Of a stretch of DNA of 64,000 nt, positions 11,365 through 43,380 are shown piece by piece (position 1 is the stretch's first letter; the number at the start of each line of letters is the position of its first letter). The stretch is from Tetrahymena elliotti 4EA (taxonomy: Eukaryota > Ciliophora > Oligohymenophorea > Hymenostomatida > Tetrahymenidae), in NCBI GenBank assembly GCA_000231825.2, contig JH720328.1:747334-811333 (forward strand), in the 5' to 3' direction. A model generated the notes under the pieces. It had not been told where the DNA came from, ran no database searches, and worked only from the letters and a program-made list of their open reading frames with translations. The position numbers and the translations under genes were made by a program.

Positions 11365-14300
11365 ATGTCTCAAATATAAAGTGGAAACAGACAAAGTTTT
11401 GAGAATTAAATAGAAATTATTTAATAAGCAATAAAGAAAAATGAATAAAATTTGAATAGCCTAGTCTACAAAGCTTAGGAGGTCTCCTTTAGAATTTCTC
11501 CTATTATAAAATTTGAAAATTTATCAGATTGCTAAATGAAATAGATCCCAGTATAAAAATTACAGTAAAAAAATTATCAATCATTATTGTACATTAGCGG
11601 AGATGGCAATTGCTTTTACAGAGCTTTTATGATTGATTACTTAATTCAAATATTTTCTACAAAAAATATTTCTTAGATAGAGCAATTAGTTTAAAATACT
11701 TACCAATTAAATGAAATTCATTTATAATTCGGATATAGTGATGAAAACATAGATACTCAGCTTTAATTGTCTATCAAACTTAAATTTCTATAAAACATTT
11801 TAAAGTGGCATAACATTTTCATACCTGATTAAAGTCAAACAAAGACAGCTGATATTGCTTCAATAATTTTTTAAGATTATAAAGATAACTTTACCTTAGA
11901 TTTGTGCTCAGTAGTAATATGCAAAAACCTGATTTATTAAGTTGTTAATAATAATCTAAAAAATGATATTGATTGCTCTTAAATAAAAGCTCTTGATAAT
12001 CAAACAAAAGAAGAAATACCCTAGTTGCTCTTTAAATATTAAGAATTTGCTTAACATTTCTGCATATCTAGTGCTCCAAAAGTATAATTTAATAAAAGAT
12101 ATTTAAAAATATAATAAATTTATTTTAAACATTTTAATAGGCTTTCAATTGCAAGTTAACTACTTATCTGATTAACATTTAAAAATAAGAATTACTTGAA
12201 TTTGTGTTTGGTGGCATATAGCAAGACAACCTTACTTAAATTAATCTCCTTCTACTGAATTAGCATTACTATATTCTTTTTAAATAGTCTGCAGAAGAAC
12301 TCTAAATTAAAACTTACAAAAATTAGTAATTCTATTAAATCATGGAATAAAGCATAATGTAATAAATAACTTTTTAATCTAAATTATTATCTGTTTATAT
12401 TAAATCTCTCTTTCCAAATCTCCTCCTCAAATCCTATAAAAGGTTAAATATTATTTTTTATTCCCATAAAAATAAATACCTGATATTTCTTCATATCAAA
12501 ATTTTTTTCTTCAAAAAAATGTAAAAATATCTGAAAAAAAAAAAACTTAATTCTTGAAATTTTTTCAAAAAAGAGTAGGTATGAAATATGATGAATTCTG
12601 CATTAGATTAATATTTTTTTATAAATAAAAATTATTAAAGATTAATATTTTTTTGGTTAATATATTAGAATACAAAATTCGTATTTGAAATCTTAAGATT
12701 TAATGTTAAGTGGTATTAAGCACTCAAATAAGATGTAAAAATGCAATTAATGTAAGAATGAAAGAGACATGATTCTTTATAATAATGCATATTATTGCTT
12801 AAGTTGCATTTAGGATCTAATTAATTAGCCAAATCAAAATAAATAGGCTGATGATTTTATGTTGGAATAGAATATTAAAATAGAAGAACAAATGATAAGA
12901 AATGCTTAAGAATCAGGAAAATAATTCTATTAAAATTAAGTTTAATAAAATAATAATCAAGTAATATTTTTTAAACAGAAAAGCAATTGTCAAGAATGCA
13001 ACTCAAGTGGAATATAAGCTTATATTATTGAAAATAAACAATATTGTTTAGGCTGCTTAGATTTTATATATAACCATGATAAGAGTATAAAACATATACA
13101 AGAAGCCTTTCCATTAATAAAATAGAATAAAGTTCAAGATTTTTCAACTTAAAAAATATGCTAGTAATGCCAGAAAATAAAAAGTGAGCTTTATTAAAAT
13201 TTTTGTATGCAATGTATTGAATATAAATCTCTCAAAGAATATACGATGAATAATTAATCATAAGTATAAAATAAATAAGATAAGATGAGTTCAAGCAAGA
13301 GTAATTAAAGTAATTCTGAAATTAAAAATAGTAACTAGGTCAATTAGGGAAATAACCGTTTGCAAGATAACAACTAATTATCTGCTACATAGTGTGATAT
13401 AATAAATTAATTGATTGGTTAATCTTTGGAAAGGGAAAGTAAGAATCAATAAAAAAATGCTTAGTAAAATGAATAAAACAGCAATAATAGTGGAATTCAG
13501 AATTAATCAAGAGTATCCAATTCCTCATAAATAAAAGCAAATCAACAAACAAATAATATTGAATAAGCCTTCATTGCCTTTCAGAATGTGAAATTATCTA
13601 CTTTTCCTAGCTAATAAAACCAATCATAAGTAAAATAATAACAAAATCATAGCTTCCCTCTTTCATAAAATTAAAATTAAAATCAAAATTATGTTGATAA
13701 TAATTAGAATCTTGATCCAAATCAAAACTAAAATTAAGAACCAAGTTAAATGTAAAATGGATACTAATAGAATAACCAAAACCAATAACAGTAGTAATCC
13801 TATCAATAAAATGGCAATTATTAACAGTAATTTAATCATAACTTTGCTGGTTATAATAACTCTATGCCAAATTAATACAATCCAAATAATAATATGAATA
13901 ACAGCAATTATTATTAAAACTAAAATGGTTAATAATAATATCAAAACATAAACAATTAATAAAACCAAAATAATTTTTAAAACTAAGATAACGGTAATGG
14001 GAATTTCATGAATAACTTCATGATGGCTGGTAATTAAGCTCAAAACCAGTAAATTTAAGGTTAAAATTAAAATAACTAGAAACAACAAATAGTTTACAAT
14101 TTTAGTCAACAACAAAACAATAACTTTAAAAATAACAATAATGTTAATAATAATTTTAATAACAATAAGAACAATAATTAAATCAATTTAAATTAAAATA
14201 AATACTAGTTTAATTTTGTCAATCCATAAATTTAAAATTTTGAAAAAAATAATTTAAGCCAAAATTAGACGTACCAAAATAACTAACATCATTAATAAAA

Positions 14301-15318
14301 TATTGCAAATCAACATGAAAGATTTGGAAGTTTTAATTAAAACTATTAAAAATAATTTTTAAATCAACAACAAAATTTTAACTAATAAAATGGTAATCAA
14401 AACTATTAAATGTAAAATTAAAATTAATAGCCTGCTTTGAATTAAAATATTATGAATTAATAGAAACCAAATAACTTTTAATAAAACTAAAACCCAAACA
14501 ATTAAAATAATAATTAGTAATTTAACTAATAATTTCTAAATCAATAATAGAATAATAATACCTAATAAAATTAAATGCAATTTAACAATAACAATCCGAG
14601 TTAAATACAATAAAATCATAGTAACATGAATTTAAATCAAAATAATGTTATTTTTGATTAATAGTATCATCCTAAACCTTTAAGTGAATAAGAATAATAA
14701 AATTTATAATATCCAAATAACTTTTTGTAAAATAATTAGAAAACAGGATAAACTAATTAAATGAATAATTAGTAATTTAATGGAAATATCAACAGCTAGC
14801 CAAAAAATAATCAAATGTATCAAAATAATAGTTAACAAAATTAGATTCCTAATGAAAATAATAATAACAGAAGTAATAAAATAGAATTTCCAAATAACTT
14901 CAATATGGCTGCTTAAAATCTTAACTAGCCCATTTAAAACTTTAATATTAATTCAAATAACTAAATTTAAATGTAATAATATCCTCTTTAAAATCAGCAA
15001 TAATATAATAAACCCCCTACAGGTTAAAATTAACCTTAATCAGAATTTTAGATTCCTCCTCAACCGCAAAATATAATAAATTTTTTATAAAATTAAGATA
15101 ATAATTAATACCAGTTGTAGCAGTAGTAATTACCACAACAAAACTAATTCTAAAACTAAAATAATTATTAATAACCATAGCAATACCAGTAATAATAACC
15201 ATAATAATAAAATATAGCATAAAAGAATGACCAGTTCTTCTAACCTCAATCAAATAATTAAAATAATATCAATAATAATGGTATAAATAATAAATTATTT
15301 GTGTAAAACTTTAGTTGA
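11365..15318 (+). CDS. Otubain-like (C65/OTU) protease with CxxC zinc-ribbon array and Q/N-rich tail
   Basis: Exons 11365-12081, 12141-12442 and 12669-15318 join in frame (phase 0, then phase 2) to give 1,222 residues; TGA at 15316-15318. The start follows AAAAAAGA. The otubain signature YISGDGNCFYRAF places the likely catalytic Cys at residue 83. The exon-2 start AFNCKL matches the otubain AL.V core, and LLLLNQHYYILF gives the catalytic His at about residue 281. From about residue 365 come three CxxC...CxxC pairs (CNQC/CLSC, CQEC/CLGC, CQQC/CMQC) that look like zinc ribbons. After about residue 500 the protein is almost wholly Gln/Asn with scattered Tyr, Phe and Gly, which is prion-like. Known otubains remove ubiquitin; activity here is inferred from the intact motifs. 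It is the first of three tandem paralogues, all on the + strand. Confidence 0.82.
13260..15300 (+). repeat. Prion-like Q/N-rich coding tract
   Basis: About 680 codons of AAT, AAC, TAA, CAA and TAG, with occasional Tyr, Phe, Met and Gly, form the C-terminus of the gene at 11365-15318. Every TGA triplet in this stretch is out of frame, so the frame is preserved despite the low complexity. Confidence 0.8.
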
Positions 15319-16087
15319 ATTTAAGTTATCTTTATGATCTATAAAAATAAAGATTTCTACTTTGAAATGTTTTTAAAGTTTATTTATAATAAATAAATTA
15401 TTTTTACATCATTTTATAAATGGAGCAATTTCTGTGGATTTTTAATTTTTGAAAAAGGTGAAAGGACATCAATCAATCTTAATGATTTAAATTAATCATT
15501 TGAAAATATGATTATAATAATTCTTTTGTAGATTTTTTTGATTGATTTGCAAAATATTTCAAATATTTATTTTCTTTTGTTTAAAGTTTTAAATATTTTG
15601 ATAAACAAAAAAAATATAAATATTGAAAAAAACATTTTCTTTCACCCTTCTTTTAATCTCATTAAAAAAATATTTTCTTTAAATATTTTTTAAAAAGAAA
15701 GGAAGGAAATATTTAAATTTCAGAATAGTTTTAAAATAAGTCAATAAAAATATTCAATAATATATTAATCGATATGTATGTTGCTCGAAAAGACAAAAAA
15801 AGTTAATAATTATACTTCACGTATTAACTTTCATCAATTAGTTTTGATTATGAAGTGAATAATTATTGGGTTTCTTAGAAATTATGAAGACGAAATTTTA
15901 GTTTTATCTGATCTTGTATTAGAATATTGCAAATTATTGATTGTCCCGGTTTTTTTGAATGATATTTAGTTAATTCATAAATTGATAATTAAGTAGAAAA
16001 ATAAGGTAAAACAAAAACTATTAATAAATTGATTTAGAATAGTAAAAGCAGAATAATAATTATACTGAAAACAAAACTTAAACAAAA
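15319..16087. other. Intergenic between first and second otubain-like genes
   Basis: AT-rich spacer holding the 3' flank of one gene and the promoter of the next. No coding potential or structured RNA recognised. Confidence 0.6.
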
Positions 16088-18673
16088 ATGAGCATAGAGG
16101 TTACTACTCATATAGAAACAATAGAGGTTTTAGTAAATGAATTAAAAAATAGTAAAAATGAATAAATAGAATATTTAAATAGCGTGATAGCAAATTTTAC
16201 TAAAAGTAGTATAACTAAGTGCGATGACATTAACGATATCACCTAAGCTTTATTACCATCAAAAATAGATATCTAAAACAAATTTAAAACTATTCTTTAC
16301 ATACAAAGCTATGATAATAATGGTTTTTACAGAGCTGTATTTATTCATTATTTGATTAATCTTTTTGTTCCTTAAGATAATACCTTATAAGTAGAATTTT
16401 TTATTAGAACTGTTTTCTAGCTAGCTAAGTAAGAAATTTTGTTTTCTACAAATGGTCAAAATGAGGAAATTGCAGAACTTGAAATTGTAGATAAACAAAG
16501 TATTGTTATTGAATTTCTAGATATCGTTAAAGAGTGGTTTTAAGAAAAAAAGAAAGGAAAGAAGCCATAATAAATAATTCAACAGATGTTCACTGAATTG
16601 ATTGAAATTAAAAAATTAGATTTTTTAGCTGTTGTAGTATGCAAAAACTTATTTTATAAGTGCTTTGAAAGAATCGGAATGTCATAGATTTATAGAGGTA
16701 AAGAGAAAAAAGATGTAGAGTAATAAGTAAAGTAGAAACTAGAAGGATTTGAGGAAAGCATTGACCCTTTAATAATTAGTTTGGCTTGTGAAGTATATTC
16801 ATATATATTTATTATTAATTATATTTGATTAACCTATTTTTTATTTGGACTAAAAAAAGGTCTTTGAATCAAAGGTCAATATTATCTACTCAGTTAATAA
16901 AACAACTCAATAAAAGGAGACTCTTCCACTTATAACTAATTAGCCAGAATAAGAAATAAATATCCTTTTTTAAGACTAAAAATTCTATATTTTGCTGAAT
17001 AAAAGTTAGAAGGACTTATGGTTATTGAAAACAGATAATAGAAGTTTAGAATCTCAATTAATAGATAATTAGTAAATCTTTTTTCATTTATTCATTTATT
17101 TTTTCCTCTTGTTATCATTTGGATTACTTGTGTATTATTATACTTCAGCTAAACATTGTAATTATTTATTTTATTACTTTAAGCTTGCTTAGAAATTTTA
17201 TTAGGTTTTCTTGATATTTTGCTTTTAAATCTCTTAATAAATTTAAGAAAATATAAAAATGATTTTTATTGAATCCCTTCACTAAGCACTTAAATTATTG
17301 AAGTTTTTTAATTTTTAAAAATAAAAAATAGTGTTTCTTAAAACCAATAATAATATAATGCCGGATATTAACAACAAATGAAATATTTTCTCCAATAAGC
17401 TAAACTTGTGAAGTATTTTGAAGATAACATAGATCCAAATTATGAAGCTTCTCAAAACATAAGTACAAATAAAAAATAAATAGAAATTAAAATATTTGCA
17501 GAGGCATCAGAAACAAAAGCTTATTTTAATAGCAACATAAAAATTGAGTAATAATAAGATAATCTTTGTACTACTTGCAAAAGAACTCAAAAAACTTATC
17601 TTGTTATAAATAAAAATTACTGTATAGAGTGTATTACATAACATGGAAGTCAATATCCTGGTAAATTCATCCCTAATTCTAATAGTTTTAGTGATGAATT
17701 TAAGTGGGCATTAAGCCTAATTTAAAAGTATGATAGTAGAGACTCTAATTCATAACCACAAAATAATTAGTTGTATTATCAATTTAGATAACATAATAAT
17801 TAGCCTAATAATTAACCAAATAGTTAAAACAATAACAATAACAACTATTAAAATAATAATTATAATCAATTTCAAAATCAAAATCAAAATTACTAAAATA
17901 ATAATACATAGGGCTAGGTAAATTAATAGAATTATAATTAACCATAGAATTAGTTCAATCAAAAAAATTTTAATTAACCATATAACTATATAAATTAATA
18001 GAATTATAATTAGCCATAGAATTAGTTAAATTAATAACATTTTAATTAACGATAGAATTAATTCAATCAAACAAATTTTAATTAACCATAGAACTAGGTA
18101 AATTAATAGAATTATAATTAGCCATAGAATTAGTTAAATTAATAACATTTTAATTAACCATAGAACTAGGTAAATTAATAGAATTATAATTAACCACAAT
18201 TTATTCTAAATACTCATCATAACGTCTAATAAATTGCTTAACACTATCCACCACAAAATGTTATTTCTGGAAATCAACAAAATATTCCTAATAACTTTTA
18301 ATAAATTCCTTAGCAATGCTTTTAGCAAAATCAAATCGACTTTTATTAAAATCAACAAAATATTCATAATAACTTGTAACACGCATAACATAACGGAATT
18401 TAAGTAAATTGTTAAAAAAATCCTGCATATAGAATCAATGACAACAATAATTATTAAACCAATTAAAATTAACTTTAGAACAATTAAAACTAAAATCCTG
18501 TTTTCAGACAAACATTGGAAAATTAAACAAATTTTATGTAAAGAGGAATAAATTAGCCAAACTAAAATTAATATTACAGCTTATAATAAAATTAACATTA
18601 ATTTTAATTTTAATAACATGCATAAGTCTACAACTAAAAAAAGATTCAAGAAATACCCAAGAATTTCTATTGA
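16088..18673 (+). CDS. Otubain-like pseudo-protease with zinc ribbon and Q/N repeat tail
   Basis: Exons 16088-16792, 16860-17071 and 17332-18673 join in frame to 752 residues; TGA at 18671-18673. The fold matches its neighbours: a YIQ...FYRAVFIHYL helix, the phase-0 intron, then VFESKVNIIY, ILF and KFYILL. The active site is gone, however. GDGNC is replaced by YDNNG (Gly79 at the Cys position) and the His of the HYxIL motif is replaced (QKFYILL). A single CxxC...CxxC pair (CTTC/CIEC, about 17.57-17.63 kb) precedes a Q/N-rich tail containing an 11-residue tandem repeat. Intron positions and phases match the genes on either side, so this is a diverged duplicate rather than an unrelated protein. 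The frame is intact over 752 codons, which argues for a retained function without proteolysis, such as ubiquitin binding or regulation of active siblings. That role is inference. Confidence 0.78.
17906..18197 (+). repeat. 33-bp coding tandem repeat (NQxNQxxFNQP)
   Basis: About eight units of 33 bases, each encoding an 11-residue unit such as NQFNQKNFNQP or NQVNQQNYNQP, lie in the C-terminal tail of the 16088-18673 gene. Alternating F/Y/H variants suggest a higher-order two-unit duplication. Confidence 0.8.
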
Positions 18674-19173
18674 TAATTAAATAAAAATAAGCTGGTGATT
18701 ATTAAATAAATATAAGTCTACAAGTCAATCTTGATATAAATTAATTATAATTTTTTGTTTGTTTATTTGAATTCAAAAGTTTATATTAGTAGAATAGTCA
18801 TTTAATTTTATTATTTTCTTCTCTATTTTGCTTTAATTTACAAATAGTAATTCTAAAAATTATTTACTTTTCACATCTCTTTTATTTTTGATATTCTAAT
18901 TAGTTTGTTTGTTTGTTCTTTTTTTATTTTAATTCCTTCTTTTCTGCAAAATAATAAATATTCTAATAGCATTTTCATTAAAATCAAGCAAATTATTACA
19001 TTAAAAGAACTAAGCATCAAAAATAAGCAAGTTAAATCCATTTATTTGAAGCAAAATTAGGTAAAAAATAGAATATTATAAATTGTCTTAATGAGGTCTA
19101 TTGACTAGTGGCTTCTAAGCATCATTTTAAAATATATTTTTATCTTTTTAGATAAATTCAACGCCAATAAAAA
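18674..19173. other. Intergenic between second and third otubain-like genes
   Basis: A 500-base AT-rich spacer. Nothing recognised beyond the presumed terminator and promoter. Confidence 0.55.
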
Positions 19174-21133
19174 ATGAATCATTTTTTACAATTACAAAAT
19201 ATTATTTTATCTCTGCAATATAGGTTGGAAGCAATTTCTTAATAAGTTAGGATGGAATCTATTTCTAATGAAAACTTAGCTTAAAAATAAATAAGCTCTG
19301 ATGAGGTTAAGTAAATGATTGAGCAAGATGCCATTTATAAAAAATACTTAGAAATTTAGAATGATAAGAGTTTTGAGAAGAAATGTGAAAAAATGATACA
19401 GATTTTAAATGATTTTAGTTATGGTTATAAAAGTGTGACAGAAAATGAAACAAAAAACTACCCTATTTATTATTAAAGAAGTATAAACAAAGAAATAGAG
19501 AGGATTTCATCTCAGTTTCCTAAATATATTGATGTTAGAGGTGATGGTAACTGCTTTTATAGATCAATAATGTTAAGTTTCCTATTGTAAATGTTTTCGC
19601 CATCTGAATAAAGACTATTTCCAGAGTTTCAAATCAAACAAATCCTGAATTTCTTAAAAAATGTTGATAATATCAATAATCGTTTGTAAAAGTATAGAAT
19701 ATAATTACCATACTCTTTAGATAACATTGATATTTCAGATTTAAAGGACTACTTCTTGTGTTAAATATGTGGATTGATCTAAGAGTTTTTAAATGGTTAG
19801 CAGTAAATGTTCAATAGTGTTATTCAAGTTTACGAAATCAATCCTCTATTCGATTTTTCATGTGTAATAATATGTAGGCTTATGATTTTTAAATCATTTT
19901 TGATTCATAATTAAAACACTCAACTTCGTTAATTTAGAGACTAAGAAGTAATGAATTAAATTCAATAACTTTTACTAAATTATGGAACTCAAGCAGAGGA
20001 TATGATCATCAAACTTGCAGCTGAAGTAAACTTTAATTAATCAAATTTTAAATTTAGTTAAAATAAATATGCTTTTTTATTGCCAATCTTAATCCTGCTT
20101 CAACATCTTATTTTTACATCTTACCTAAAATGGTTAGATTCTTAAATTAATATATTCTTATAATTGTTTTCTTTAACAATATTTCATAATAAATCATCTT
20201 AAAATCTCAAAAATACATTGAATTTTTAGAACTGAAATAAGCAAAAAATTTAATGTATTAAAAAATTCTTTTATTCTTTAAATAATTAAGTTATTATTAA
20301 TCTAATTTTTTATATTATAGTAACTAAATTAACTTTTTGACAAATATTATTTTCCTAATTTTCAAAAGAGAAAATTTTTAGATTACAATGATTAAAAAAT
20401 TAATTTTTATAAAAAAGGCATTCAACTGCAATCTGATCATTTAGAATCTGTATTATAACAGTATGGATAACATTACAAACTAAATTATTTTTTAGCCTTT
20501 AGTTATTTAGTAGAATTAACAGTACTTTGCAGTTCCAATACTTTATACTAATGGCCATTATATGGGACTAGTTGATAAAAATCTATTAGATAGAAAGTAT
20601 GTTTCTTAAGATTAAGATTTTAATTAATATATCTTAAAAATCAAAAAATAATATTTTTTGTACATATTTTGCCTTCTCATTTATTTTTTTAATTTAATTA
20701 CAGTAAACCTATAGAAATTAAAGGCTAAATTCAAAGTATTATGAATTAGCAATAATAATAAATTATTCTAAATTAAGGAGAAAAACAAATCAAATAAAAC
20801 ATAGATATAACAAAAAGACAATAAGAAATGTAACAAATATATGAAGATCAGAAAATTAGATGGATGCAAAATTTAGCTAAATTTACAGGGCATAAAAATG
20901 ATGGGTTTTGCTTCATTCAATATTATAGTATTAATAATTCTTTTTAATCAATTGAAGCACATTAATAAATATATTTGAAAGTACATTCAATTGAAATATT
21001 AATTTGTTCTAGTTGCTAAGAAAAAATATAAAATGATAAAAAATAATAAGAAAAAAATATTGAATATTTCGAAATAAAAAATGATATTTTTCATGATCTA
21101 GCAGTATTTAAATATAAAGATTTTTAAAGATGA
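19174..21133 (+). CDS. Otubain-like (C65/OTU) protease, compact form
   Basis: Exons 19174-20025, 20418-20596 and 20704-21133 join in frame (phase 0, then phase 2) to 486 residues; TGA at 21131-21133. The signature YIDVRGDGNCFYRS puts the catalytic Cys at residue 127. Exon 2 opens with AFNCNLIIQNLYY, and PILYTNGHYMGLV gives the catalytic His at residue 331. The 392-base first intron lies at the family-conserved site; the second has a canonical GTATGT donor. The C-terminal part is shorter than in the neighbours and keeps only one clear CxxC (ICSSC) and no Q/N tract. The chosen ATG follows CAATAAAA; a second in-frame ATG at 19252 is possible. It is probably the most conventional enzyme of the three upstream copies. 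Deubiquitinase activity is inferred from the motifs. Confidence 0.8.
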
Positions 21134-22676
21134 TTATTTATTATTTTATTTTTTGTGTTTTTTATTAAAATTTAATTTAAAATGGCAAAAAAAAATATTA
21201 TTTCATTCAATTAAAAATTTAAATATCTGGAAATAAATTTTCTTCGAATTTTTATTATTTAACTTTTTATTATTTAATGGAAGGATTTGGGAATAAAAGC
21301 TCATTAAATTACATTAAAATTTAATGTGTAACAAAAAACTCTTTTAAAATTAAAAATATATTTAGTTGATTTGCAAATTTTTTTAAAGCTTTTTTAAAAT
21401 AAAAATGAACAATTTGAGAAATAAAAAGATTGTTGTTGGATTTCTTTTTTATTTTTTTAAAGAACTGATTTATTATATTGATAAAAAATATCTATTTTTT
21501 GTAAAAATCTATTAATAAGAATTTTTTACATGGTAAATTTAAATTATTTTAGAATTATTCTAAATAATTAAAAGCCAAAATTTCAATTTTTGTTTTAAGA
21601 TACTTCTTTTCATGATTTTCAATCAAGACTAATAGAGAAATTATTCTTTTTTTCAATTTTTTCAGATAAACATTAATTATAAATAATATGAATTTTTTTA
21701 AGATATTTATTTTATAAAAAGATAAGAATGTAAAAATATGTTATATTTAATGAAATTATGAGCAGCCAATTGAATAATTTTATTAGTTCTAATATAATAT
21801 GTAAAATATATTTTTTGATTAGTGTGTTTTTTAAAACTTACAAAAAATATTTATTTACTATTCATACTTTTTTACTTCCAAAATTTCAAAAAATATAGTT
21901 CTTTTATCTATGAAAAATATTAAGATATTGCTTAAAGCAAAATCATTAAAAAACTTAGAAAGAAAAATAAAAATCTTTTATATAATATTAAAATTTTGTA
22001 GTTTTTTTTATTTAATTCAATAATCTAATTTTATCAAAATATATTTAGAATTTGTTTCATCACTTTCATTTATAATAATTTTAAAATAAACTTTTTAATT
22101 TATGAGTGAATTTGTTTAAAATCATTTTTTACACTTTGTCAGGTATTTCAACTTTATATTTCTATATTGATATTTTTTAAAGCTTAAACATTTGGAAAAT
22201 AAATTAAAAAGATAGGAATTTTATTCAATTATATTATTTTTAGGTTTATTGAATTATTTAAAGTTTATTTTAAATGATTTATTGTTTTCTTTTAATGGTA
22301 TTTATTTGTGATTATACCTTTAAAGCATTCAAAAAAGACCTACTTTTGATTTACACTTTGAATATTTGATTGACTAGTTTTGTTCTGTAATCTTTAAATA
22401 GACTAAGGTGTTTTAATTGTTTTTTACAGTTAATAATAAGATAGATATTTTTTAATTTTGATTAAAAATTTAAAAAATTATCAGAATTAATAATATTCAT
22501 TAATAAATTGGGATTATTCTTTCTGATGAATTCTAATTTTAATTTACACAATTCTTAATGAATAAAATATATAATTCCACTTTTTAGCAATATTTAAATA
22601 CAAAAAAGATTTTTGTATGATTGTAAAATAAATTTAAAAATCAAAAAATTTAGAAAAAAAAATACCTATTAATAAT
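21134..22676. other. Intergenic, very AT-rich
   Basis: 1.5 kb of A/T-rich sequence between the otubain-like gene and the scramblase. No conserved open frame, RNA or mobile element recognised. Confidence 0.6.
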
Positions 22677-23564
22677 ATGAATTAAGATCTCGCTAAAGAG
22701 TACTGCTACGTTACGCAAGATTTACATAATAATAATAATGATTTGTCATCTAATTTAAAAGAATTCATTTAAAATATAAATAAATGTGCATCAATATTTA
22801 TTTACTAGAAATTTGATGTTGAAACAGCTTTTTTATGTGTAGCTCCAAGAAAATACAAAATATATGGAGAAGATGATCAAAAGAAGATGGTGAGCAATAA
22901 ACCTCTTATTTATGCAAAAGAAAGAAGTAATTGTATAAGCAGAAATTGTTGCCCAGGAGATTGCTAGCCATTCAGAATGAACATTTATTAAAAGTTGCAT
23001 GTAAAGGATGAAATTTAAAATGAGATAAAAGTAGATAAAAATATTAACTGTTTTATTCTATTAGAAAGGTAATTTAGATGCACTTTTTTATGCTTTTTTA
23101 GGCCTTTTATGAATGTTTCAATCAGAATTTAAGATGGGTAATTTAAATAAATTGGAAAAATTAAAGACCCACTAAAAATTTGTCCTCCAAAAGAATTCTT
23201 TTAAACAGGAGTAGATGTTCATGATTAAAATGATAACTTGCTTTATAAAATTGAAGCATCCGAATTCTCATGTGGAACATGTTTTAGTTCTTGCTGTTGT
23301 TCTCCTTGTCAAGAAGTAAAATTTCATATAAAAACCCCTCATGATGACAAAACTGTAGGATATGTAGAAAAGAAAGCAACAGACTGTGTCAAAAATGCAT
23401 TAACTGGAATGTCAAATTTTAAAATAATTTACCCTGAAGGAATAAACTTTGAAGTAAAAGTTTTGATTCTAGCAGCTACATTTTTCATTTAATCATAAAT
23501 GTTTATTGAATCGCCACCAGAATAATCTGAAGACGTAGATGATATTTTAGATTTATTATAATGA
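22677..23564 (+). CDS. Phospholipid scramblase family protein
   Basis: Exons 22677-23068 and 23102-23564 join in phase 2 to 284 residues; TGA at 23562-23564. Scramblase hallmarks are in order: a Cys-rich block NCCPGDCQPFRMNIYQKLHV, then IGKIKDPLKICPPKEF, a Cys cluster CGTCFSSCCCSPC, the VKFHI strand, a GYVEKK segment, an IYPEG motif and a hydrophobic C-terminal helix VLILAATFFI. Family members are Ca2+-linked membrane or nuclear proteins implicated in moving phospholipids between leaflets. The intron is only 33 bases (GTAATTT...TTTTAG). After the hydrophobic helix comes a short acidic tail rich in Glu and Asp. The length is normal for the family. The gene lies between the otubain cluster and a giant membrane protein, with no sign of shared regulation. 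Confidence 0.88.
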
Positions 23565-34423: not shown

Positions 34424-35488
34424 TAAAAAAAATACTAATTTATTTTTAAAAAATAAGAAAAATAAAAAACTAAATTAATTGATGATAGATGAATCCTTTA
34501 TGAAAATAATAAAAATAAATCTCAAACAAAATGCCTCTTTATTTTGATTTGAATATAAGAAAAAATATTACTTAAATAATAGATCAGCTTTCCAATTGAC
34601 TGATTAAACAAACAACTAATTGTCTATTTATAGTCTGATAAATTCATTAAATTTAAATTATTTTAACGAATGTCAATACTTATTTAATTCACATTAATTA
34701 ATCTATTTTTAATTCCAAAACAATTTATCATAATCACTCTTATTTTAAAAATATACCATATTCCTTTATTTTATATCATTTAAATTATTTCAATTAACTA
34801 ATATTTTATTTTTATTAATATTTTAAATTAAATTCAATTCTAAAATTTTCTTTTGCTTAAAAATAATAGAATTATATTACTCCTTTTTACAATAAAGCTT
34901 TAAAAATTTTTATTTAAGATTGCACTTTTTATCTTGAACAAAATCATTTTAAAAATTTTAATTTGTTTAAGATGATTTTGATTAATTTTTTTTTATTTAT
35001 TTTCTAAAAAAATATAAAAATTTGATAGTAATAATTATTTTTTTTATGATTAATTTGCTTTAGTTTTTTATTTTTTGATTTAGAATAAGATTCGCTTTTT
35101 GACCTAAATCTTTTGAATCAAATTCACTATTACCTTTGAATCAAATTTTATTTAAAAATCCATCAGTAAAAATTAAATATTTAAACATATGCGTCAACAA
35201 CTACGTTCTAATTCACTGATCTAAATTCTGTATTATTAATAAAAAATTATCTATGTATCTAATTGGATCTATTTATTATTATAATAAGATCATCATTATA
35301 GATCACCTGTAATAAAAACGTATTTATTATAAATAATTTGTTAATTAATATCATTCAAATATTCTTAGATACCTGATTAAGATAGAAAATAAACAAAAAA
35401 ACACACATTTATTAGTATTTTATTAATTTTTAAAAAATATAAAAAACATAAAGGTAAAATACACGAATATTTGAAGTTAGATAGTAAA
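34424..35488. other. Intergenic, AT-rich
   Basis: About 1.06 kb separating the giant membrane protein from the fourth otubain-like gene. No feature recognised. Confidence 0.6.
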
Positions 35489-37938
35489 ATGGATAGAAGT
35501 AATATTTTAGAATCTATACTATTTAGCTTTACTTTTTTCATTAATATTAATTAATACTTTTGAATAATAAATAGGTGGAAGTTTTAACAAACCTAAAATT
35601 TTTGAAAGGATTTCAGATGATGAGTTTTTAGTCCACTTTGGAAAGGATAAAGATTTTGTTGGTATTATAGAAGAAATGATTCACTTGGCAGAGAAATACA
35701 ACTTAAGCTATAAAAATGCTTTGGATTCATTTGTTGATTAGCTCAACATCAAGCTAAAATCAATTCATGTTATATCCAAAATCGATGTATTTGGAGCTAA
35801 GTACTCAAAAGAAGAGAAATATCACAATGCATTAAAAAAAATAGTTGATAAATATCCTTTCTACATGATGGTTAGAGGTGATAAAAACAGTTTTTATAGA
35901 TCATTTATGCTTTCATTAGTTCTTTCTTTGATTCTAAACAAGAAAACAGCTGTGATCGTTTCTCTAATGAAAAAAATTTCCAGTATCTCATTAATTAGTT
36001 TTAAGCACAAGAAAGTTTAAGCTCTTAAAAGAAATGTAGAGTTTCTCAAATGTTTCTTGCTAAGTTTTCTATATGAATGCGTGGAATTCAGTTTAGGTGC
36101 CAGATAATTCAATTTGAGAGATTTTGTTAAACGTTACAACTCAGCTCCTATTGTAGATTTTGGTATGGTTATCTTTTCCAGACATTTAATTTTAACAAAA
36201 TTTGAAGATAATTCTTGTGATCCTGAATACAAGCATCTCTTTGACTAAGTTAACCAAAATAAAACAAAGAACTATTTAAATGAATATTCTAAGGAAGCAG
36301 AAGAGTTCATATTCCCTCTAGCGGCACAAGTAATTTGAATTATTTATTGATAATAGATTATCAAGTAATTCTCCTTTATGTATTTATCAATATAATTCAT
36401 TTATTTTAAAGGCATTCTAAGTTGATTTAGTCATCTAGAACTTGTACTTGTAAAATAACAAATATGTTACTAATGAAATTTAATTCAAACCTTTACCAGG
36501 ATCTGATGCTTTAGAAAAAATTATTCTTTGTTGCTAGAAAGATCACTTTGAATCTTTAATTCCTAAAGATTTGTACTAAACTCATTTATCTGAGTACGAT
36601 GAAATTGAACTTTTTGAGAATATTGATTAAGCTAAGATGGAAAAAAATGGTGAGCTAAAAGATGACGACGACGACGAGGATGATGTTCTTTTAGATGAGG
36701 ATGTTTAAGAATAAGAAATAGAACATAATTATGAAGGAGAACAAGAATTAGATGTTGAAGAAGATAGTACTATGCCTCAAGATTCAAATAAGAAAAAGAA
36801 CCGTAATGAAGAGAAAAGTGAGTAGTTTGAAGACCAAAATTTAGATGATGAGCTATAAAAAGAATAGGAAAGAATTGAGTAAGAACAATTAAAATAAAAG
36901 CAATTAGAATTAGAAAAAAAGTTAGAGGAAGAGAGACTTTAAAAAGAGGCTGAAGAAGCTAGAATAAAAAAAGAAGCAGAAGAAGCAAGAATTAGATAAG
37001 AAGCTGAGGAGGCAAAAAAAAAATAAGAAGCAGAAGAGGTAAGACTCAAAAAAGAAGCTGAAGAGGAAAGAATCAAAAAAGAGGCAGAAGAGGCAAGATT
37101 AAAGAAAGAAGCAGAAGAAGCTAGAATTAAGAAAGAAGCTGAGCAGGCAAGACTGAAAAAAGAAGCTGAAGAAGCAAGATTAAAAAAAGAAGCTGAGGAA
37201 GCAAGACTTAAGAAGGAGGCAGAAGAAGCAAGAATTAAGAAAGAAGCTGAAGAGGCAAGATTAAAGAAAGAGGCAGAAGAAGCTAGAATAAAAAAAGAGG
37301 CTGAAGAAGCTAGAATTAAATAAGAAGCAGAAGAAGCAAGAAAAAAGAAAGATGCAGAAGAAAAAGAAAAAGAAAGAATATTATTAGAGAAATAAAAAAG
37401 AGAAGCTGAAGAAATACGTATAAAAGAAGAATAAATAAATAAATAAAAAGCAGAAAGCGAAAGATAGGAGTCACTTTAGAAAGCTGAAGCTGAAGAGAGG
37501 GAAAGATAGCTGAATTTACAGAGGGAAAAAGAACTTGAAGAATTTAAGAGAAAAGAAGAAATTCAAATTCCTGAACCTCAATAAAGCTAGAGATAAGGAT
37601 AATCTTCTGGGTTGAGATATAGAAATTAGGAAAGATAAGGTGGCCAAGAACGTTTTGATTCTTCTCTGAATCCAGAAGGCCAAACAATTTAAGACAAAAG
37701 CTAGAATCAAGCCTAATCTTAATAAGCTTAAGGTTAGAAGAAAGCTTCAGAAAGAATTTAGTAGATTTAATCTTAGAATGCTTCTTTTAAATAAAACAAA
37801 AAGAAAAAGAAAGACTAATAATATTGGGTATATATTGCAATAGGAGCAGCAGTTCTATTTGGTTCTATTGTTATTGATAAAGTGAAAAAAAATGAATTAT
37901 AAATTACACCATTGTCATATATCAAAAGTAAGCTCTGA
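35489..37938 (+). CDS. Otubain-like pseudo-protease with long E/K/R helix and C-terminal membrane anchor
   Basis: Exons 35489-35498 (ten bases), 35575-36329 and 36412-37938 join in frame to 763 residues; TGA at 37936-37938. The OTU fold is clear: FYMMVRGDKNSFYRSFML, then after the shared phase-0 intron AFQVDLVIQNLYLQ, then IILCCQKDHFESLIP. The catalytic block is changed from GDGNC to GDKNS, with Ser109 at the Cys position, while a His remains in the His motif. Next come an acidic stretch (DDDDDEDD), about 16 copies of a 9-residue unit (EAEEARLKK type) forming a highly charged helix, and a Q/S-rich linker. The C-terminus is WVYIAIGAAVLFGSIVIDK, one hydrophobic helix followed by about 18 residues. 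This is a tail-anchor arrangement and there is no N-terminal signal, so it is probably held on the cytosolic face of a membrane. No CxxC ribbons are present. It is likely an inactive scaffold or ubiquitin-binding protein; Ser in place of Cys makes proteolysis unlikely. Confidence 0.78.
36937..37370 (+). repeat. 27-bp coding tandem repeat (9-residue EAEEAR[IL]KK units)
   Basis: About 16 head-to-tail 27-base units in the pseudo-protease gene encode alternating Glu and Lys/Arg with Ala. The charge pattern fits a solvent-exposed single alpha helix better than a heptad coiled coil. The units differ mainly by synonymous changes and Ile/Leu swaps, so expansion and homogenisation look fairly recent. 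Confidence 0.85.
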
Positions 37939-39036
37939 AAGCAGGGTTGAAAAACCAAAAAAAAAATCAAATAAAATTCAATTAAATACTTCTTATTTAT
38001 ATAAAAAGATATTTATTTTTAAACCATCTTTTTTTTTCAATCAAATGAAATATTATCAATTGGTCTACAATCTCTTTTCATCATTTGTACAATTTTATAA
38101 ATATTTTGTCTTTTTTAATTTAAATCAAGTAATAAAAAATGGTTTGATGTAATTTATTTTATTTGTTTAATTTATTTTGAAATAAACATAATTAATCAAT
38201 CTATTATTGAAAGATTTCTTCTCAATAAAAATATTAAATTATATATTTGCTATTTTTAAAAGTTATCATGTATATTTATTGTTTGTTGTATGATAAAAGT
38301 TGTAAACTTAATAAAAAAAATGTTGAAATATTCTTTTATCAAAAATAAATAAATAAAATGAAAATAAAAATGAAATAAAAAAATAGAAAAATACCTTTTA
38401 GAATTAAAAACATTTGCAATAACAACACTTTCTTTTTTAATACCGAAGCAATAAATATTTATTGAAATCTTTCTTATTTTGGAAAAAATTTGTATTCAAT
38501 TTTTATTTAAAAAACTAAAATTTTTAAATAATTTAATTTAAAATTGATATTTTTGCTTATTTGAGAGAAAAATATAAAATGAATTGGTCATTATTTTATT
38601 TAAAATATTTTTTGGAATTAATTTTATTTATTTGAAACAATTAGAATTATTTCTGTAGACACATTAAAATCAATTATTATTAAATTAAAAATTTTTTTTT
38701 TAAGAAACTAAAATGAATTCAAATCTTCTGAAGAAGATTTAATTAGAATATATCTCTCAGTTGATTGATTGATGATCAGGAAGTTTAGAATATTAAGAAT
38801 AGGTTAGTTTTCAGCTTTTATTTTTACTCATAAATAAAAAAAAAGAAAATACATTCTTTTCTAACAGATTAATAATTTTTTGATTCTGACTGACTTTTTC
38901 TCATAATAAATTATATTAATTAGTTGTGTAAAATTTTAGATAAAAAAGCTTTTATTAGATAATAAGATACATAAAAAAGTTTACTTCGCAATAAATATTT
39001 TCAAAAAAAATATTTCTTAGACTATTAAAATAATAA
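37939..39036. other. Intergenic between fourth and fifth otubain-like genes
   Basis: 1.1 kb AT-rich spacer. A short frame starting at the ATG at 38712 (MNSNLLKKIQLEYISQ, stopped by TGA within 20 codons) was seen, but nothing links it to a gene. Confidence 0.5.
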
Positions 39037-42000
39037 ATGGACTAAATATAATAGGCTTCAGGATAATATCCCTATCATAATAGAGATGTCTAAGGATAGT
39101 AAAATTATTAAAAGTAATAGCTTTAAGGATAATAGCCTACTAATTAAAGTGATTAAGTATTATAATAATAAACTAATTAAAAGTAGTAGATTTAAGGATG
39201 GAAACCTTATGAAAACTAGAATAGTATAAATTAATAATTGAACCAAAACTAGTAGATTTATGGATACTAACTAAATCAAAATTAAAATGACTAAGGATCT
39301 TCTTCTAATCAAAATCTATAACTTAAAGGATAATAATCTAATGAGATTAAGTAGATTTAACCAGATTAGTTTAATTTTCATGAGTTAGCTTAAATCATTT
39401 AGGAGACTTAGGTATCTCTTCCTAATCAAAATTAACTGACTTAAGGATAATTACCTATTTAGAATTAGTAAAATCCAAATTTTGCTTTTAGAATAAACTC
39501 ATAAAATCAAGGACCTTATCAATAATAACAATAGGATTAAGTATAATACGCTAATGGTAGCAAGTAAATTTATGAAAATTAAACTAATTAAAACTAGCAA
39601 CCATATGCATAATAAAAAATTTCGTAATAGTAGTTTTAAGGATCTCTTCCTAATCTAATGTAGCAGGTTTAAGCATAATACCCAAACTAAAATTAATAAA
39701 CAGGAAATGGTTTGATTAGTTAAAACTAATAACCTTAAGTACCTTATCCTAACCAAAATTAATAGGTGTAAGGAAGTTAAAATAATGAGAGTAAATAAAC
39801 AATAGAAAATAAGCCAAATTACAATTAGTAGGTTGATAGATAATAATTTAGGTAGTAATAATAATTTTAAGGATTATTAGCTAATCAAAACTTACAGGTT
39901 TAGGACTAATTGCCAAGCTAAAATTTACAGGCATAAGGATTATTGTCTAATTAGAATTAGCAATTCACAACAAAAGATTTGTTGAGTCAAAAATAATAAA
40001 TTCAAGAATCTAATCCTAATTAAAATTAATAAGTTTTAGATTAAGGATAAATCTCTAATCAGGGTAAATAAATCTATATAAATTAACCAATTTAAAACTA
40101 GCAGGCTTAAGGGTAATAATTGATTAAAAATGTTGAGGCTTAAGGATCTTTACGTAACCAAAACTAAAAGATTTTAGAATAAATTCCAAATATGAATATG
40201 TAAAATATTTAGGATATTCCTTTTCAAAACAAATAAATTTTAGGACCTTATCCAAATCAATAGTAATAGGTTTCAGGACCTCATCTGAATTAAAACTAAT
40301 ACGCTTAAGGATTTTAGCCTTTTAAAAGCAATTAGATTCAAGGTGATTAGCCAAATTAAAACTAGCAGACTTAAAAATAATAATTTAATTGGAATTTTCA
40401 AAAATCTTATTAAAATTAATAGTTTTAAGGATAAATCACAAATTAGAATTAGCAAAAAATCTAAGGGTACAATATTTTTGGAACCTAAACATTTTATGTA
40501 AATTATCCAAATCAAAACTAGTAGTATAATGAAGATTAACATAATAATTTTATTCAAGGAGATTAGAATAGCTAAAATTAGCAGGTGATTTAATAATTAC
40601 CTTTTGAAGACTTACTGAGTTAAGGATTAAATCAGTAGACATAAGGTTTATAACAATAAAACCAATAATTTTATGGATAAAACCCAAATTATGTAAAGAA
40701 TTTTCAGTAGTATTTACCTAGTTAAAACTAATCAGTTTAATTACTAGGAACTTAATAGAACAATTAAATTTAAGGTTAATAACCTATTCAAAACTAATAG
40801 GTTTAAGAATAATAACTAAATCAGAACTAACCTAATCCATTCTAAAATTTTTAAGGATAGTTTGATAATTAGATTTAGTAATAATAAGAAAATTAATAAC
40901 CTATTTAAAATATTTAAGGATTTTCATCTCAATAAAACTAGTAGATTAAAGGGTAATAGCCTCTTGATAACTCATAGATTTAAGGTGAATAGCCTTATGA
41001 AATGTAATAAATTGAAGAGTAAAAATCAACTTCAGATTAGGTGGTGTTTGCTATTTAAAATAACTACTATGAAGGTAAAATAAAATTTGATAATAAGGAA
41101 TATGAAGAAGAGGATATTATTGAAATATTTTAAGATAGAGATATTATTCAAATAATGAAATATTGTGAGTTTTATATTAACTTGAAAATAGATAAATTAA
41201 AGCAGCAGCAACAACAATATTTAATAGATAAGCTTAATTTTCGTTATGAATCTTTGTAATCATTTGAATCTTTAAGATCATATGCTAAAACTAACATCAA
41301 AGGTGAATAGCTTGCATAGGCTTATTATGATGCCAACAAAGACTTTCCTTTCTAAATTCTAATTAGAGGAGATGGCAATTGTTTCTATAGGTCTTTTATG
41401 CTAAGCTATATTTACTCTATTTTCATTTAAAAAAATTCAAAAGAGATTACAACACTTTTTAAGCGAGTTCAAAATTTGAAAGATTTAAATTACAAAATAG
41501 ATAACATTACACAGGATCAAATCAACCTATCACAAGATTTTAAATGCAATTTTTTGCAATTTTGGATTAAAGCCTTCATTGATTATCAAATGCAACTGAG
41601 TCAAAATAATATATATGATTTACAAAGTCTCTTTAAAGAATACAATAATGTTCCTTATGTTGATGCTGCTACAGTCATTCTTTGTAGAAATATCATTTTA
41701 GAGAAATTTAATTAACTGTTAACTGATCCTGATTATTGCTATTTTATCACTGAAGAAGCAAAAGAGTAAAGTCCTAAATATCTTTTACTTTATGGTTAAG
41801 AAGCAGAAGATGTAATCATACCAATTGCAGCAAAAGTAAAATTTTTATCATTTTAAATTAATTCTCCAAAGCTAAATTTTAAAAACTTCTTTTCTATTTT
41901 TCTAGAAAAAAATTAATTAATAAAAAAATCCAATAATTTAATAGAATTTATTTTGTTTTTTTGCAAAAAATGAGGGTTTTAAAATTAAATAACTTTATTA

Positions 42001-43380
42001 GCTTTACAAAACAAAATAAAGAATAAAATTAACTTACTTTTTAAATAAAAAAAGGCTTTTGGAGTTGATTTAAAAGTAAAAAATATATATAGAATAAACC
42101 AGTAAATATTCTAAGATGAGTTGATGTATAAAAATGAGTAATAAATAGAATCAAATATTATAGTCTCTGTTTTATTTACAAAAGGTCACTATAATTGTTT
42201 ATTTACAAAGGAAATATATTCTTTAAACTAAAAATCTTTTATATGGCCTAAATTCGAGGAGGAATTAGAACCTACTTAAACAAACGAAATTTCTAGTAAT
42301 GAAGATATTTATTTTGTTGAGGATGAGACAGAAGAAGTTTCAAATAAAATGTAAATATATTCAGGAAAAGACAATAGATATCAAACATTCATCTAAAAAT
42401 AAGAATAAGAACATTTATTAAAATAATTTGCTTGTTTTAGATGCAAAAAAATGTAATAAGGGATTATAGTAGTAGAAGTTTCTACTCGATAATAGTAATA
42501 ATACTGCTATTAATGTATTAAATAAAAAAAGAACAAGAATGATAAAAAAAATGAAATCTATGATAAAGAAAAGTTTAAAGAATTTTTAAAAACTTTTGAT
42601 GAAAGTGAAAGTTGCTCAAAATGTAAAAAAAAACTGAAATCTATTTAAATTTTTAAATGCAAAAAATATAAAGGCTTGTTGACTAAAAAGTATTGTGTTG
42701 ATTGCTTAGGGGAAAAGTACTAAAATGCGGATCTTTTTAAACCCATATGGTATGACATATTTTAATTTAAAGAAAAGTTTTCTGAAGACTATCCTTGTTT
42801 TGCTTGTAAAAAATTTGACCATTCCATTAATTACATAGTTAGATATTAAAATAATTAAGATTTTTCTTTATTTTTAGTTATTTGCAGATAATGCTACATA
42901 CAAATTTATAATCAATTTTTCAACAAGTTAAATGAAATTCAAAAATTAGGAGGAAAAAATTTTTTAGACAAGTGCTGTTTATGTAATAATATTGATTAAA
43001 TATTTAACTATGAGAATAACTAAAATATTTGCCTCACTTGCATTTAATCTAAGCTTGATGAGACCAATCCAGAAAATTTCAATCAAAATATAGCCAAAAT
43101 TAATTCAGAAATATTTAAATAAAATCTTTGTATTTACTGCTTATCTTAAAGGAATAATTATTTATAAGAAGTATTAGATGTTTCAGCTCCAGCTTATAAT
43201 TATTGTGAACCTTACTGCTATTTATGCTAAAGGTGCATTCTCAGAATTTTCAAGTATCAAAAAATTCAGGTTGAAGAAAATTTTACTTTAACATTGCCTT
43301 ATTTTACCAAAACAGTTTAATTATAATTAAATTTTAAATAATTTCATTTAGAAAGGATAAAGAAAATTATTAATGAATGA
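39037..43380 (+). CDS. Otubain-like (C65/OTU) protease with N-terminal Q/N repeat and five CxxC zinc-ribbon modules
   Basis: Exons 39037-41835 and 42055-43380 join in phase 0 to 1,374 residues; TGA at 43378-43380. Residues 1 to about 670 are a Q/N tract built on degenerate units such as PNQNQQIQG. An acidic/helical linker follows, then the OTU domain. LIRGDGNCFYRSFML gives Cys782; after the family-conserved intron comes AFGVDLKVKNIYRI; VSVLFTKGHYNCLF gives His978. From about residue 1050 there are five Cys-pair modules (CFRC/CYQC, CSKC/CVDC, CFAC/CRQC, CCLC/CLTC, CIYC/CYLCQRC) that look like zinc ribbons. Compared with the copy at 11.4 kb, the low-complexity tract has moved to the opposite end of the protein. 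Deubiquitinase activity is inferred from an intact triad region. The Cys modules could bind nucleic acid or protein; nothing in the sequence decides which. Confidence 0.82.
39040..41060 (+). repeat. Q/N-rich degenerate repeat tract (GQxPNQNQQ type)
   Basis: About 670 codons in which a Gly-Gln or Gly-Ser step followed by Pro-Asn-Gln-Asn-Gln-Gln recurs every 12-20 residues. It uses TAA, TAG, CAA and CAG for Gln. It forms the whole N-terminal half of the 39037-43380 protein. Confidence 0.8.

What the first reader, a model, noticed from the sequence alone, without database searches (positions are those of the whole stretch)
11365..43380. Cluster of five otubain-like genes with shuffled accessory domains
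Five same-strand paralogues (11.4, 16.1, 19.2, 35.5 and 39.0 kb) share the OTU/C65 core and a phase-0 intron exactly before the [AV]F motif. Around this core the accessory parts differ: three, one or five CxxC zinc-ribbon-like pairs, a Q/N tract after or before the protease, or a charged helix plus membrane anchor. Otubains normally occur as compact single-domain enzymes. A local, diversifying family with prion-like and zinc-ribbon partners looks undescribed and could be a ubiquitin-signalling innovation in ciliates.
Basis: partly seen in the sequence, partly recalled or inferred. Interest (0 to 1): 0.9.

Follow-up and report, generated by a model that had tools for sequence, protein, structure and literature searches.

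The report
Zinc-tailed otubain family in Tetrahymena
Five neighbouring genes in a Tetrahymena-like ciliate belong to a family of about twenty genes related to ubiquitin-removing enzymes, most of them carrying repeated zinc-binding-type pieces and at least two of the five probably unable to cut; I found no description of the family, although single members are already in databases.

Summary
Pfam C65 is over cut-off in g1, g3, g4 and g5; g2 is placed by a family profile.

The interpretation needs correcting. This is not a local invention: at least 20 related loci lie on 8 contigs, eight of them in a larger cluster elsewhere, and full-length zinc-tailed relatives are predicted in three named Tetrahymena species. 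g1-g3 and g4-g5 are separated by unrelated genes. The accessory variation is largely copy number of one CxxC-CxxC module (14 of 20 loci), weakly predicted as treble-clef-like, not zinc ribbon. The Q/N tails of g1 and g2 are locally extreme; the tract of g5 is milder.

Only g5 has a complete triad.

Most likely: a lineage-specific otubain radiation in which zinc repeats or membrane anchors aim active enzymes and dead, binding-only members. That function is inferred. Joining of the g1 and g2 tails to their cores is likely but unproven.

The parts
11365..15318 (+). g1: otubain-like gene, Cys-His present, three CxxC-CxxC modules, then Q/N tail. Exons 11365-12081, 12141-12325 (3' end inferred), 12669 (inferred)-15318
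   Evidence: PF10275 44.6 bits; family profile 134.5 bits; splice candidates
12082..12140 (+). g1 phase-0 intron before AF
11599..11622 (+). g1 GDGNCFYR, intact nucleophile; the residue two after the His (NQHYYIL) is Tyr, not Asp/Asn
12742..12807 (+). g1 zinc module 1 (CxxC-x14-CxxC)
12988..13056 (+). g1 zinc module 2 (CxxC-x15-CxxC)
13159..13215 (+). g1 zinc module 3 (CxxC-x11-CxxC)
13603..15294 (+). g1 Q/N tract (at least 60% Q+N per 100 residues in 13603-14799 and 14911-15294)
16088..18673 (+). g2: probable sister of g1, nucleophile lost (Cys to Gly), His lost, one CxxC-CxxC module, Q/N tail. Exons 16088-16792, 16860-17071 (3' end inferred), 17332 (inferred)-18673
   Evidence: no Pfam C65 match; family profile 78.8 bits; 30% identity to g1, E 2.7e-9; triad
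16793..16859 (+). g2 phase-0 intron before VF
16316..16333 (+). g2 NNGFYR in place of GNCFYR
17567..17632 (+). g2 zinc module (CxxC-x14-CxxC)
17705..18316 (+). g2 Q/N tract
19174..21133 (+). g3: otubain-like gene, Cys-His present (His+2 is Met), short tail with a single CxxC. Exons 19174-20025, 20418-20596, 20704-21133
   Evidence: PF10275 39.1 bits; models; triad
20026..20417 (+). g3 phase-0 intron before AF (392 bases)
20597..20703 (+). g3 second intron, phase 2, GTATGT...TTACAG
35489..37938 (+). g4: pseudo-otubain (Cys to Ser), acidic stretch, long charged repeat helix, C-terminal hydrophobic segment, end KSKL. Exons 35489-35498 (inferred), 35575-36329, 36412-37938 (763 aa)
   Evidence: PF10275 27.1 bits; triad
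35877..35900 (+). g4 GDKNSFYR: nucleophile position Ser
36330..36411 (+). g4 phase-0 intron before AF
37828..37884 (+). g4 hydrophobic 19-residue peak (Kyte-Doolittle mean 1.92)
39037..43380 (+). g5: Q/N-rich N-terminal part, otubain core with Cys, His and Asn, five CxxC-CxxC modules. Exons 39037-41835, 42055-43380 (1374 aa)
   Evidence: PF10275 36.6 bits; orthologues ABPG74_001885 and ABPG72_007767
41836..42054 (+). g5 phase-0 intron before AF
41368..41391 (+). g5 GDGNCFYR, intact nucleophile; His motif GHYNC is in exon 2
42433..42516 (+). g5 zinc module 1
42613..42705 (+). g5 zinc module 2
42796..42894 (+). g5 zinc module 3
42973..43041 (+). g5 zinc module 4 (the one modelled)
43129..43227 (+). 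g5 zinc module 5

Best explanation
The five genes belong to a lineage-specific radiation of otubain (C65) deubiquitinase-type proteins in Tetrahymena and near relatives. Shown: common C65 ancestry; one shared intron site in 14 of 20 loci; a repeated CxxC-CxxC module downstream of the core at 14 of 20 loci; conservation of whole zinc-tailed proteins in other Tetrahymena species; loss of the nucleophile in 5 of 20. Inferred: members with Cys and His (g5 best, then g1 and g3) cleave ubiquitin or a ubiquitin-like chain, and the zinc repeats are recruitment modules that select chain or substrate, as the extra zinc fingers are thought to do in A20-type OTU enzymes (recalled). g2 and g4 keep the fold without catalysis and act as binding-only regulators. 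g4 would do this at a membrane, through its charged spacer helix and C-terminal hydrophobic segment.
For: Pfam C65 over cut-off in 4 of 5 and family profile in 5 of 5. At least 20 loci in the genome; the last three queries (g3, C6h, C1) added none. His half and zinc modules in one open frame at 9 loci: g5, C6b, C6c, C6e, C6f, C6g, C55 and both C1 genes. g5 with its five modules at 48% identity over 90% of the query in T. malaccensis and T. utriculariae. C6e at 60% identity over 100% of its length to TTHERM_00008680. g4 and the C5 locus, both Cys to Ser, are sisters at 100/98 and 34% identical, so the inactive form outlived a deep split. OTUB1 has a non-catalytic role as a buffer of charged E2 enzymes, and FAM105A/OTULINL is a membrane-located pseudo-OTU (PMC3705208 and PMC7862380, passages).
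Against: No activity, binding, expression or splicing data. The model of a whole zinc-tailed orthologue failed (mean pLDDT 35), so the OTU fold rests on profiles alone. At 5 of the 14 zinc-bearing loci (g1, g2, C6a, C6d, C6h) the modules lie in a following frame and need a further, unproven intron. The modules match no Pfam family over cut-off in the scans of whole tails, and zinc or ubiquitin binding by them is analogy. FAM105A does not bind ubiquitin, which weakens 'dead member binds ubiquitin'. No orthologue of g1-g3 was found by the one search made.
Confidence: 0.5

Rival explanations
1. In g1 and g2 the zinc plus Q/N parts are separate genes that follow the otubain genes, so those two cores are short single-domain proteins.
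For: The second introns are not forced by the frame: several donor/acceptor pairs fit, the gaps (343 and 260 bases, 17-18% GC) look like introns or spacers alike (spacers 18-19% GC), and an ATG opens each tail frame. No orthologue settles it.
Against: At 9 other loci the His half and the modules share one frame. The best-fitting second introns of g1 and g2 are phase 2, as is the clear second intron of g3. g1 and g2 tails align with each other across a module and its flanks, though two duplicated gene pairs would show that too.
Confidence: 0.2
2. g1-g4 are decaying duplicates with little function; only g5 and the conserved members matter.
For: Long branches for g1, g2 and g3 (1.67-2.37 changes per column), catalytic residues lost or altered in all four, no orthologues found for g1-g3. 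With TGA the only stop, long open frames are weak evidence of constraint.
Against: Frames and intron site are intact in all four, and family-profile scores are 79 to 197 bits. g4 has an equally inactive, 34% identical partner with an intact core frame on C5.
Confidence: 0.25
3. The accessory parts are neutral baggage of a Q/N-rich, AT-rich proteome and drift in copy number without a shared role.
For: Short polyQ/N tracts are common in T. thermophila proteins (PMC10942620, passages). Spacing between paired CxxC varies from 8 to 37 and identity between modules is low.
Against: The CxxC pairs of the five g5 modules are kept in both orthologues while residues around them change; whole C6e is kept at 60% identity. 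Long tracts of 60% Q+N per 100 residues are not background: seen only in g1 and g2 in the window and nowhere in 154 kb of other fetched loci.
Confidence: 0.2

Closest known systems
OTUB1/OTUB2 otubains (peptidase C65, PF10275)
   Same: Core profile, D-x-N-C-F-Y-R and G-H-Y motifs; the genome's own C65-contig locus (pieces joined by hand) keeps the usual form.
   Different: At least 20 loci, against one OTUB1 reported in Toxoplasma and two otubains in humans (PMC10038098, PMC3705208, passages); zinc repeats, Q/N tracts or hydrophobic ends added; nucleophile lost in 5 of 20. The cluster intron lies roughly seven codons downstream of the intron in the genome's canonical otubain (my alignment by eye of the DNA).
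A20/Cezanne-type OTU enzymes (OTU plus zinc fingers)
   Same: General plan: OTU-class protease followed by repeated zinc modules (recalled).
   Different: Core is otubain (C65), not A20-like. zf-A20 was not matched in the six whole proteins or frames named in the membership test, is not among the 25 of 36 families shown for 21 modules, and rings at one place in the genome, on contig C34, where no family locus lies.
FAM105A/OTULINL (membrane-located pseudo-OTU)
   Same: Catalytically dead OTU-class protein at a membrane, as g4 may be (PMC7862380, passages).
   Different: OTULIN branch, not otubain; g4 has a C-terminal hydrophobic segment and a long charged repeat helix.
Protist calpain expansion by domain shuffling
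   Same: A cysteine protease family multiplied and recombined in unicellular eukaryotes, ciliates included (PMC3563603, passages).
   Different: Different protease family; here largely one repeated module rather than many partner domains.
T. thermophila TTHERM_00008680 (P0008) and 'peptidase C65 otubain protein' (P0005)
   Same: Relatives of the C6e/C6f pair and of the C51 gene, grouped with them at 100/100 and 99/96.
   Different: Listed singly as hypothetical or C65 protein; no family description found.

Membership tests
Peptidase C65 (otubain) | PF10275 profile over curated cut-off | tested here: met
   g1, g3, g4, g5 yes, matches ending at profile positions 77-121 of 243 (exon 1 scanned); g2 no by Pfam, placed by the family profile
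Peptidase C65 (otubain) | Cys nucleophile in D-x-N-C-F-Y-R, g1, g3, g5 | tested here: met
Peptidase C65 (otubain) | Cys nucleophile in D-x-N-C-F-Y-R, g2 and g4 | tested here: not met
   Gly in g2, Ser in g4: homologues, not active C65 peptidases by this feature
Peptidase C65 (otubain) | catalytic His | tested here: met
   g1, g3, g4, g5 met; g2 NOT met (K or F there)
Peptidase C65 (otubain) | Asp/Asn two residues after the His (recalled as third triad member) | tested here: inconclusive
   g5 Asn; g4 Glu; g1 Tyr, g2 Tyr, g3 Met
Peptidase C65 (otubain) | OTU fold by structure | tested here: inconclusive
   model of P0001 mean pLDDT 35, unusable
Peptidase C65 (otubain) | ubiquitin cleavage | not testable with these tools
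   needs biochemistry
A20-like OTU enzymes | zf-A20 fingers | tested here: not met
   no zf-A20 at E up to 1 in P0001, P0006, P0008, P0011 or the C1 L016 and C51 L018 frames; whole-genome zf-A20 search rings once, on C34, not at a family locus
Treble-clef zinc fingers | CxxC knuckle, hairpin, helix starting at the second CxxC | tested here: inconclusive
LIM domain | two zinc sites fused with a two-residue gap (recalled) | tested here: not met
   no listed pair of modules is that close; the gaps are about nine residues or more. Against this: Pfam LIM is a hit in 2 of 21 modules (best E 0.0054) and the best PDB sequence hit is FHL2 at E 0.037
single tandem array | uninterrupted, monophyletic local cluster | tested here: not met
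   scramblase and other frames between g3 and g4; window genes not one clade in the tree

The most novel reading that the evidence does not exclude
Tetrahymena evolved, from the otubain branch, an independent counterpart of the A20 plan: an OTU-class enzyme followed by up to about nine copies of an undescribed treble-clef-like zinc module that reads ubiquitin, E2 or substrate. Beside the active enzymes stands a set of dead, partly membrane-tethered otubains (g2, g4, C5, C6h, C8) that compete for or buffer the same partners, making an unusually large otubain-based signalling set.
Probability: 0.25. Interest if true: 0.75.

Novelty: new variant of a known kind. Interest (0 to 1): 0.5.

Why it matters
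Otubains are few in the organisms cited here (two in humans, one OTUB1 in Toxoplasma). A set of at least 20 otubain loci with repeated zinc-type modules and several dead members in a genetically tractable genus would let one ask directly what a deubiquitinase gains from adding zinc repeats or losing its nucleophile, and whether the non-catalytic E2-buffer role known for OTUB1 has been split off into separate genes.

Tried and rejected
Structure of a whole zinc-tailed member: AF2 of P0001 with 7 rows gave mean pLDDT 35; discarded. A search for orthologues of g1, g2 and g3 with a three-row alignment found none at E 0.001 among 4646 candidates; it is limited by length range, shared words and a gappy profile, so absence is not shown. 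The alignment search A1 scored only 7990 candidates and returned 17, so the number of Tetrahymena orthologues is a lower bound. NCBIfam gave nothing over cut-off for five proteins. The phmmer search of g5 exon 1 against PDB sequences listed otubains from E 5.4e-6 up.

Considered and dropped: g1-g5 as one recent tandem array (tree); zinc ribbon (the model is knuckle-hairpin-helix); A20 fingers; viral or mobile origin (a paper holding both 'Tetrahymena' and 'otubain', PMC11071308, concerns OTU domains inside viral polymerases; passages; I saw nothing like it at these genes, but made no search for it). Trees: one search has 32 rows; one search adds C5 and C6h and leaves out four rows (C8 L020, P0013, P0018, P0020). 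In one search g1+g2 had only 76/62 and g4 fell weakly with g3 (60/59) before C5 was added; one search warns that the long branches of g1 and g2 meet, and 13 of its 27 inner forks are open. The profiles left out C8 L020. Rates of selection were not computed: the pairs are too diverged. The start of g4 was first taken as an open frame without Met; a 76-base intron giving MDRSGSFNKPK was adopted because it resembles the C5 gene. The C-terminal S-[KR]-L of anchored members was not pursued.

Full report
What was checked. The window is G000:C36:747334-811333 of an unnamed assembly of 89,954,799 bases in 134 contigs. The genes read through under code 6. The best named relatives are Tetrahymena proteins, so the organism is Tetrahymena or a close relative; the species was not established. 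C6a-C6h below are eight loci on contig C6; the other loci are named by contig.

The five genes. g1 11365-15318, g2 16088-18673, g3 19174-21133, g4 35489-37938, g5 39037-43380, all + strand. The phase-0 intron lies at the same codon in all five and in 14 of the 20 family loci: the five, C6a-C6h, and C55. It was not seen in the frames of the two C1 genes, C51, C5 and C8. The canonical otubain on C65 has an intron roughly seven codons upstream instead (by eye, DNA). The second introns of g1 and g2 are inferred from several possible pairs; the second intron of g3 (GTATGT...TTACAG) is clear.

Family membership. Pfam PF10275 is over cut-off for g1, g3, g4 and g5, not for g2; only exon 1 was scanned, and the matches cover the first part of the profile. 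Family profiles without the tested gene, but with its sisters and orthologues, give 78.8 to 304.7 bits for the five; the best score among 2000 shuffles per gene is 4.3. In whole relatives the profile is matched almost end to end (P0001 26-241, P0008 24-241, C51 gene 25-242 of 243), though P0006 only 16-105. PF10275 rang in 0 of the tool's 14 control genomes.

How many. PF10275 rang at 19 places, several being exons of one gene. Searches with window proteins added g2, the C5 locus and C6h; later queries added none. I count 20 loci on 8 contigs: C36 five, C6 eight, C1 two, one each on C5, C8, C51, C55 and C65. The ordinary OTU profile PF02338 has four places. The tool scores only the best candidates, so 20 is a lower bound.

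Q/N tracts. In the window only the tails of g1 and g2 hold stretches of at least 60% Q+N over 100 residues, and none was found in 17 other loci of this genome, 154 kb, all chosen for otubain genes or their neighbourhood. The g5 N-terminal part is 47% Q+N, at most 57% per 100 residues. Short polyQ/N tracts are widespread in T. thermophila proteins, for instance 106 of 124 meiotic proteins (PMC10942620, passages). So long tracts are a mark of the g1/g2 pair, not of the family; prion behaviour is untested.

Catalytic residues. Nucleophile absent in 5 of 20: g2 Gly, g4 Ser, C5 Ser, C6h Ser, C8 Ala. His absent in g2, C5 and C8, unclear in C6h. The residue two after the His, usually Asp/Asn (recalled), is Tyr in g1 and Met in g3; in C6a-g, C51, C55 and C1 it is Asp, Asn or Glu. 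Within the window only g5 has a complete triad. The C8 alignment is loose.

Relationships. Well supported: g4 with C5 (100/98), g5 with its two orthologues (99/93), C51 with its three (99/96), these two groups together (100/100). Weaker: g1 with g2 (90/86, long branches meet; 76/62), and (g4,C5) with (g5,C51) at 80/84. Deeper order is unresolved. The anchored-looking proteins (g4 and C51 by a hydrophobic C-terminus, C5 perhaps by the cysteine-rich end CCEWLRKYCCCCCPCWC) fall near g5, which has zinc repeats instead.

How it most likely works. Shown: homology, architecture, conservation, loss of catalytic residues. Inferred: active members cut ubiquitin chains; zinc repeats recruit; dead members bind without cutting. 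The inference leans on OTUB1's non-catalytic E2 buffering and on the membrane-located pseudo-OTU FAM105A (PMC3705208, PMC7862380; passages). FAM105A does not bind ubiquitin, which is a caution.

What is known. Single members are annotated in T. thermophila (TTHERM_00008680 as hypothetical protein; P0005 as peptidase C65 otubain protein). Library searches for Tetrahymena with otubain (3 papers, all listed), ciliate/deubiquitinase/OTU (25, 15 listed), Tetrahymena/deubiquitinat (100, 12 listed), C65/otubain/ciliate/expansion (6,960 with two terms, 10 listed), otubain/zinc-finger architecture/protist (54 with three terms, 8 listed) and TTHERM_00008680 (0) showed no description of the family; the lists are capped and the library holds open-licence papers only. 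The Ichthyophthirius genome paper discusses the C19 expansion and its main text has no 'C65' (PMC3341644, passages). Toxoplasma has one OTUB1 (PMC10038098, passages).

Verdict. Interest 0.5: an undescribed variant of a known enzyme family with a testable split between active and dead members, function inferred.

Noticed in passing
window g4 C-terminus (about 37.9 kb); L018; P0004; P0005: The members with a hydrophobic C-terminus end in S-[KR]-L: g4 KSKL, C51 gene RSRL, P0004 QSKL, P0005 KSKL; P0003 has KSKL followed by nine more residues. Such an end is a peroxisomal signal elsewhere (recalled), but here it follows a hydrophobic segment.
   Followed up: no
L032 (contig C5 locus): The sister of g4 also has Cys to Ser and a long AEEKR-type repeat helix, and ends in a poly-cysteine stretch that could be an acyl anchor in place of the hydrophobic one.
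   Followed up: partly
L012 2110 onward (C6d tail): A tandem repeat of roughly 100 residues, each with one CxxC-x22-CxxC module and a conserved helix-like stretch, at least four times.
   Followed up: partly
L017, P0011, P0013, P0020: Otubains whose C-terminus is cysteine-rich and by eye RING-like; P0013 and P0020 come with no organism named (sources 'ena' and 'lgn'). A deubiquitinase and a ligase-like finger in one chain would be of interest.
   Followed up: no
window 22530-23561: Scramblase gene (PF03803, 48.3 bits) between g3 and g4.
   Followed up: yes
window about 24.5-34.4 kb: Large frames, hydrophobic in part by eye, without Pfam match at E 0.01 in the three frames scanned.
   Followed up: partly
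window about 23.7 kb: A run of exactly 100 N, looking like an assembly gap, lies between g3 and g4.
   Followed up: no
L020 (contig C8): A very diverged otubain-like gene with Ala at the nucleophile position and a Q-rich N-terminal part.
   Followed up: partly
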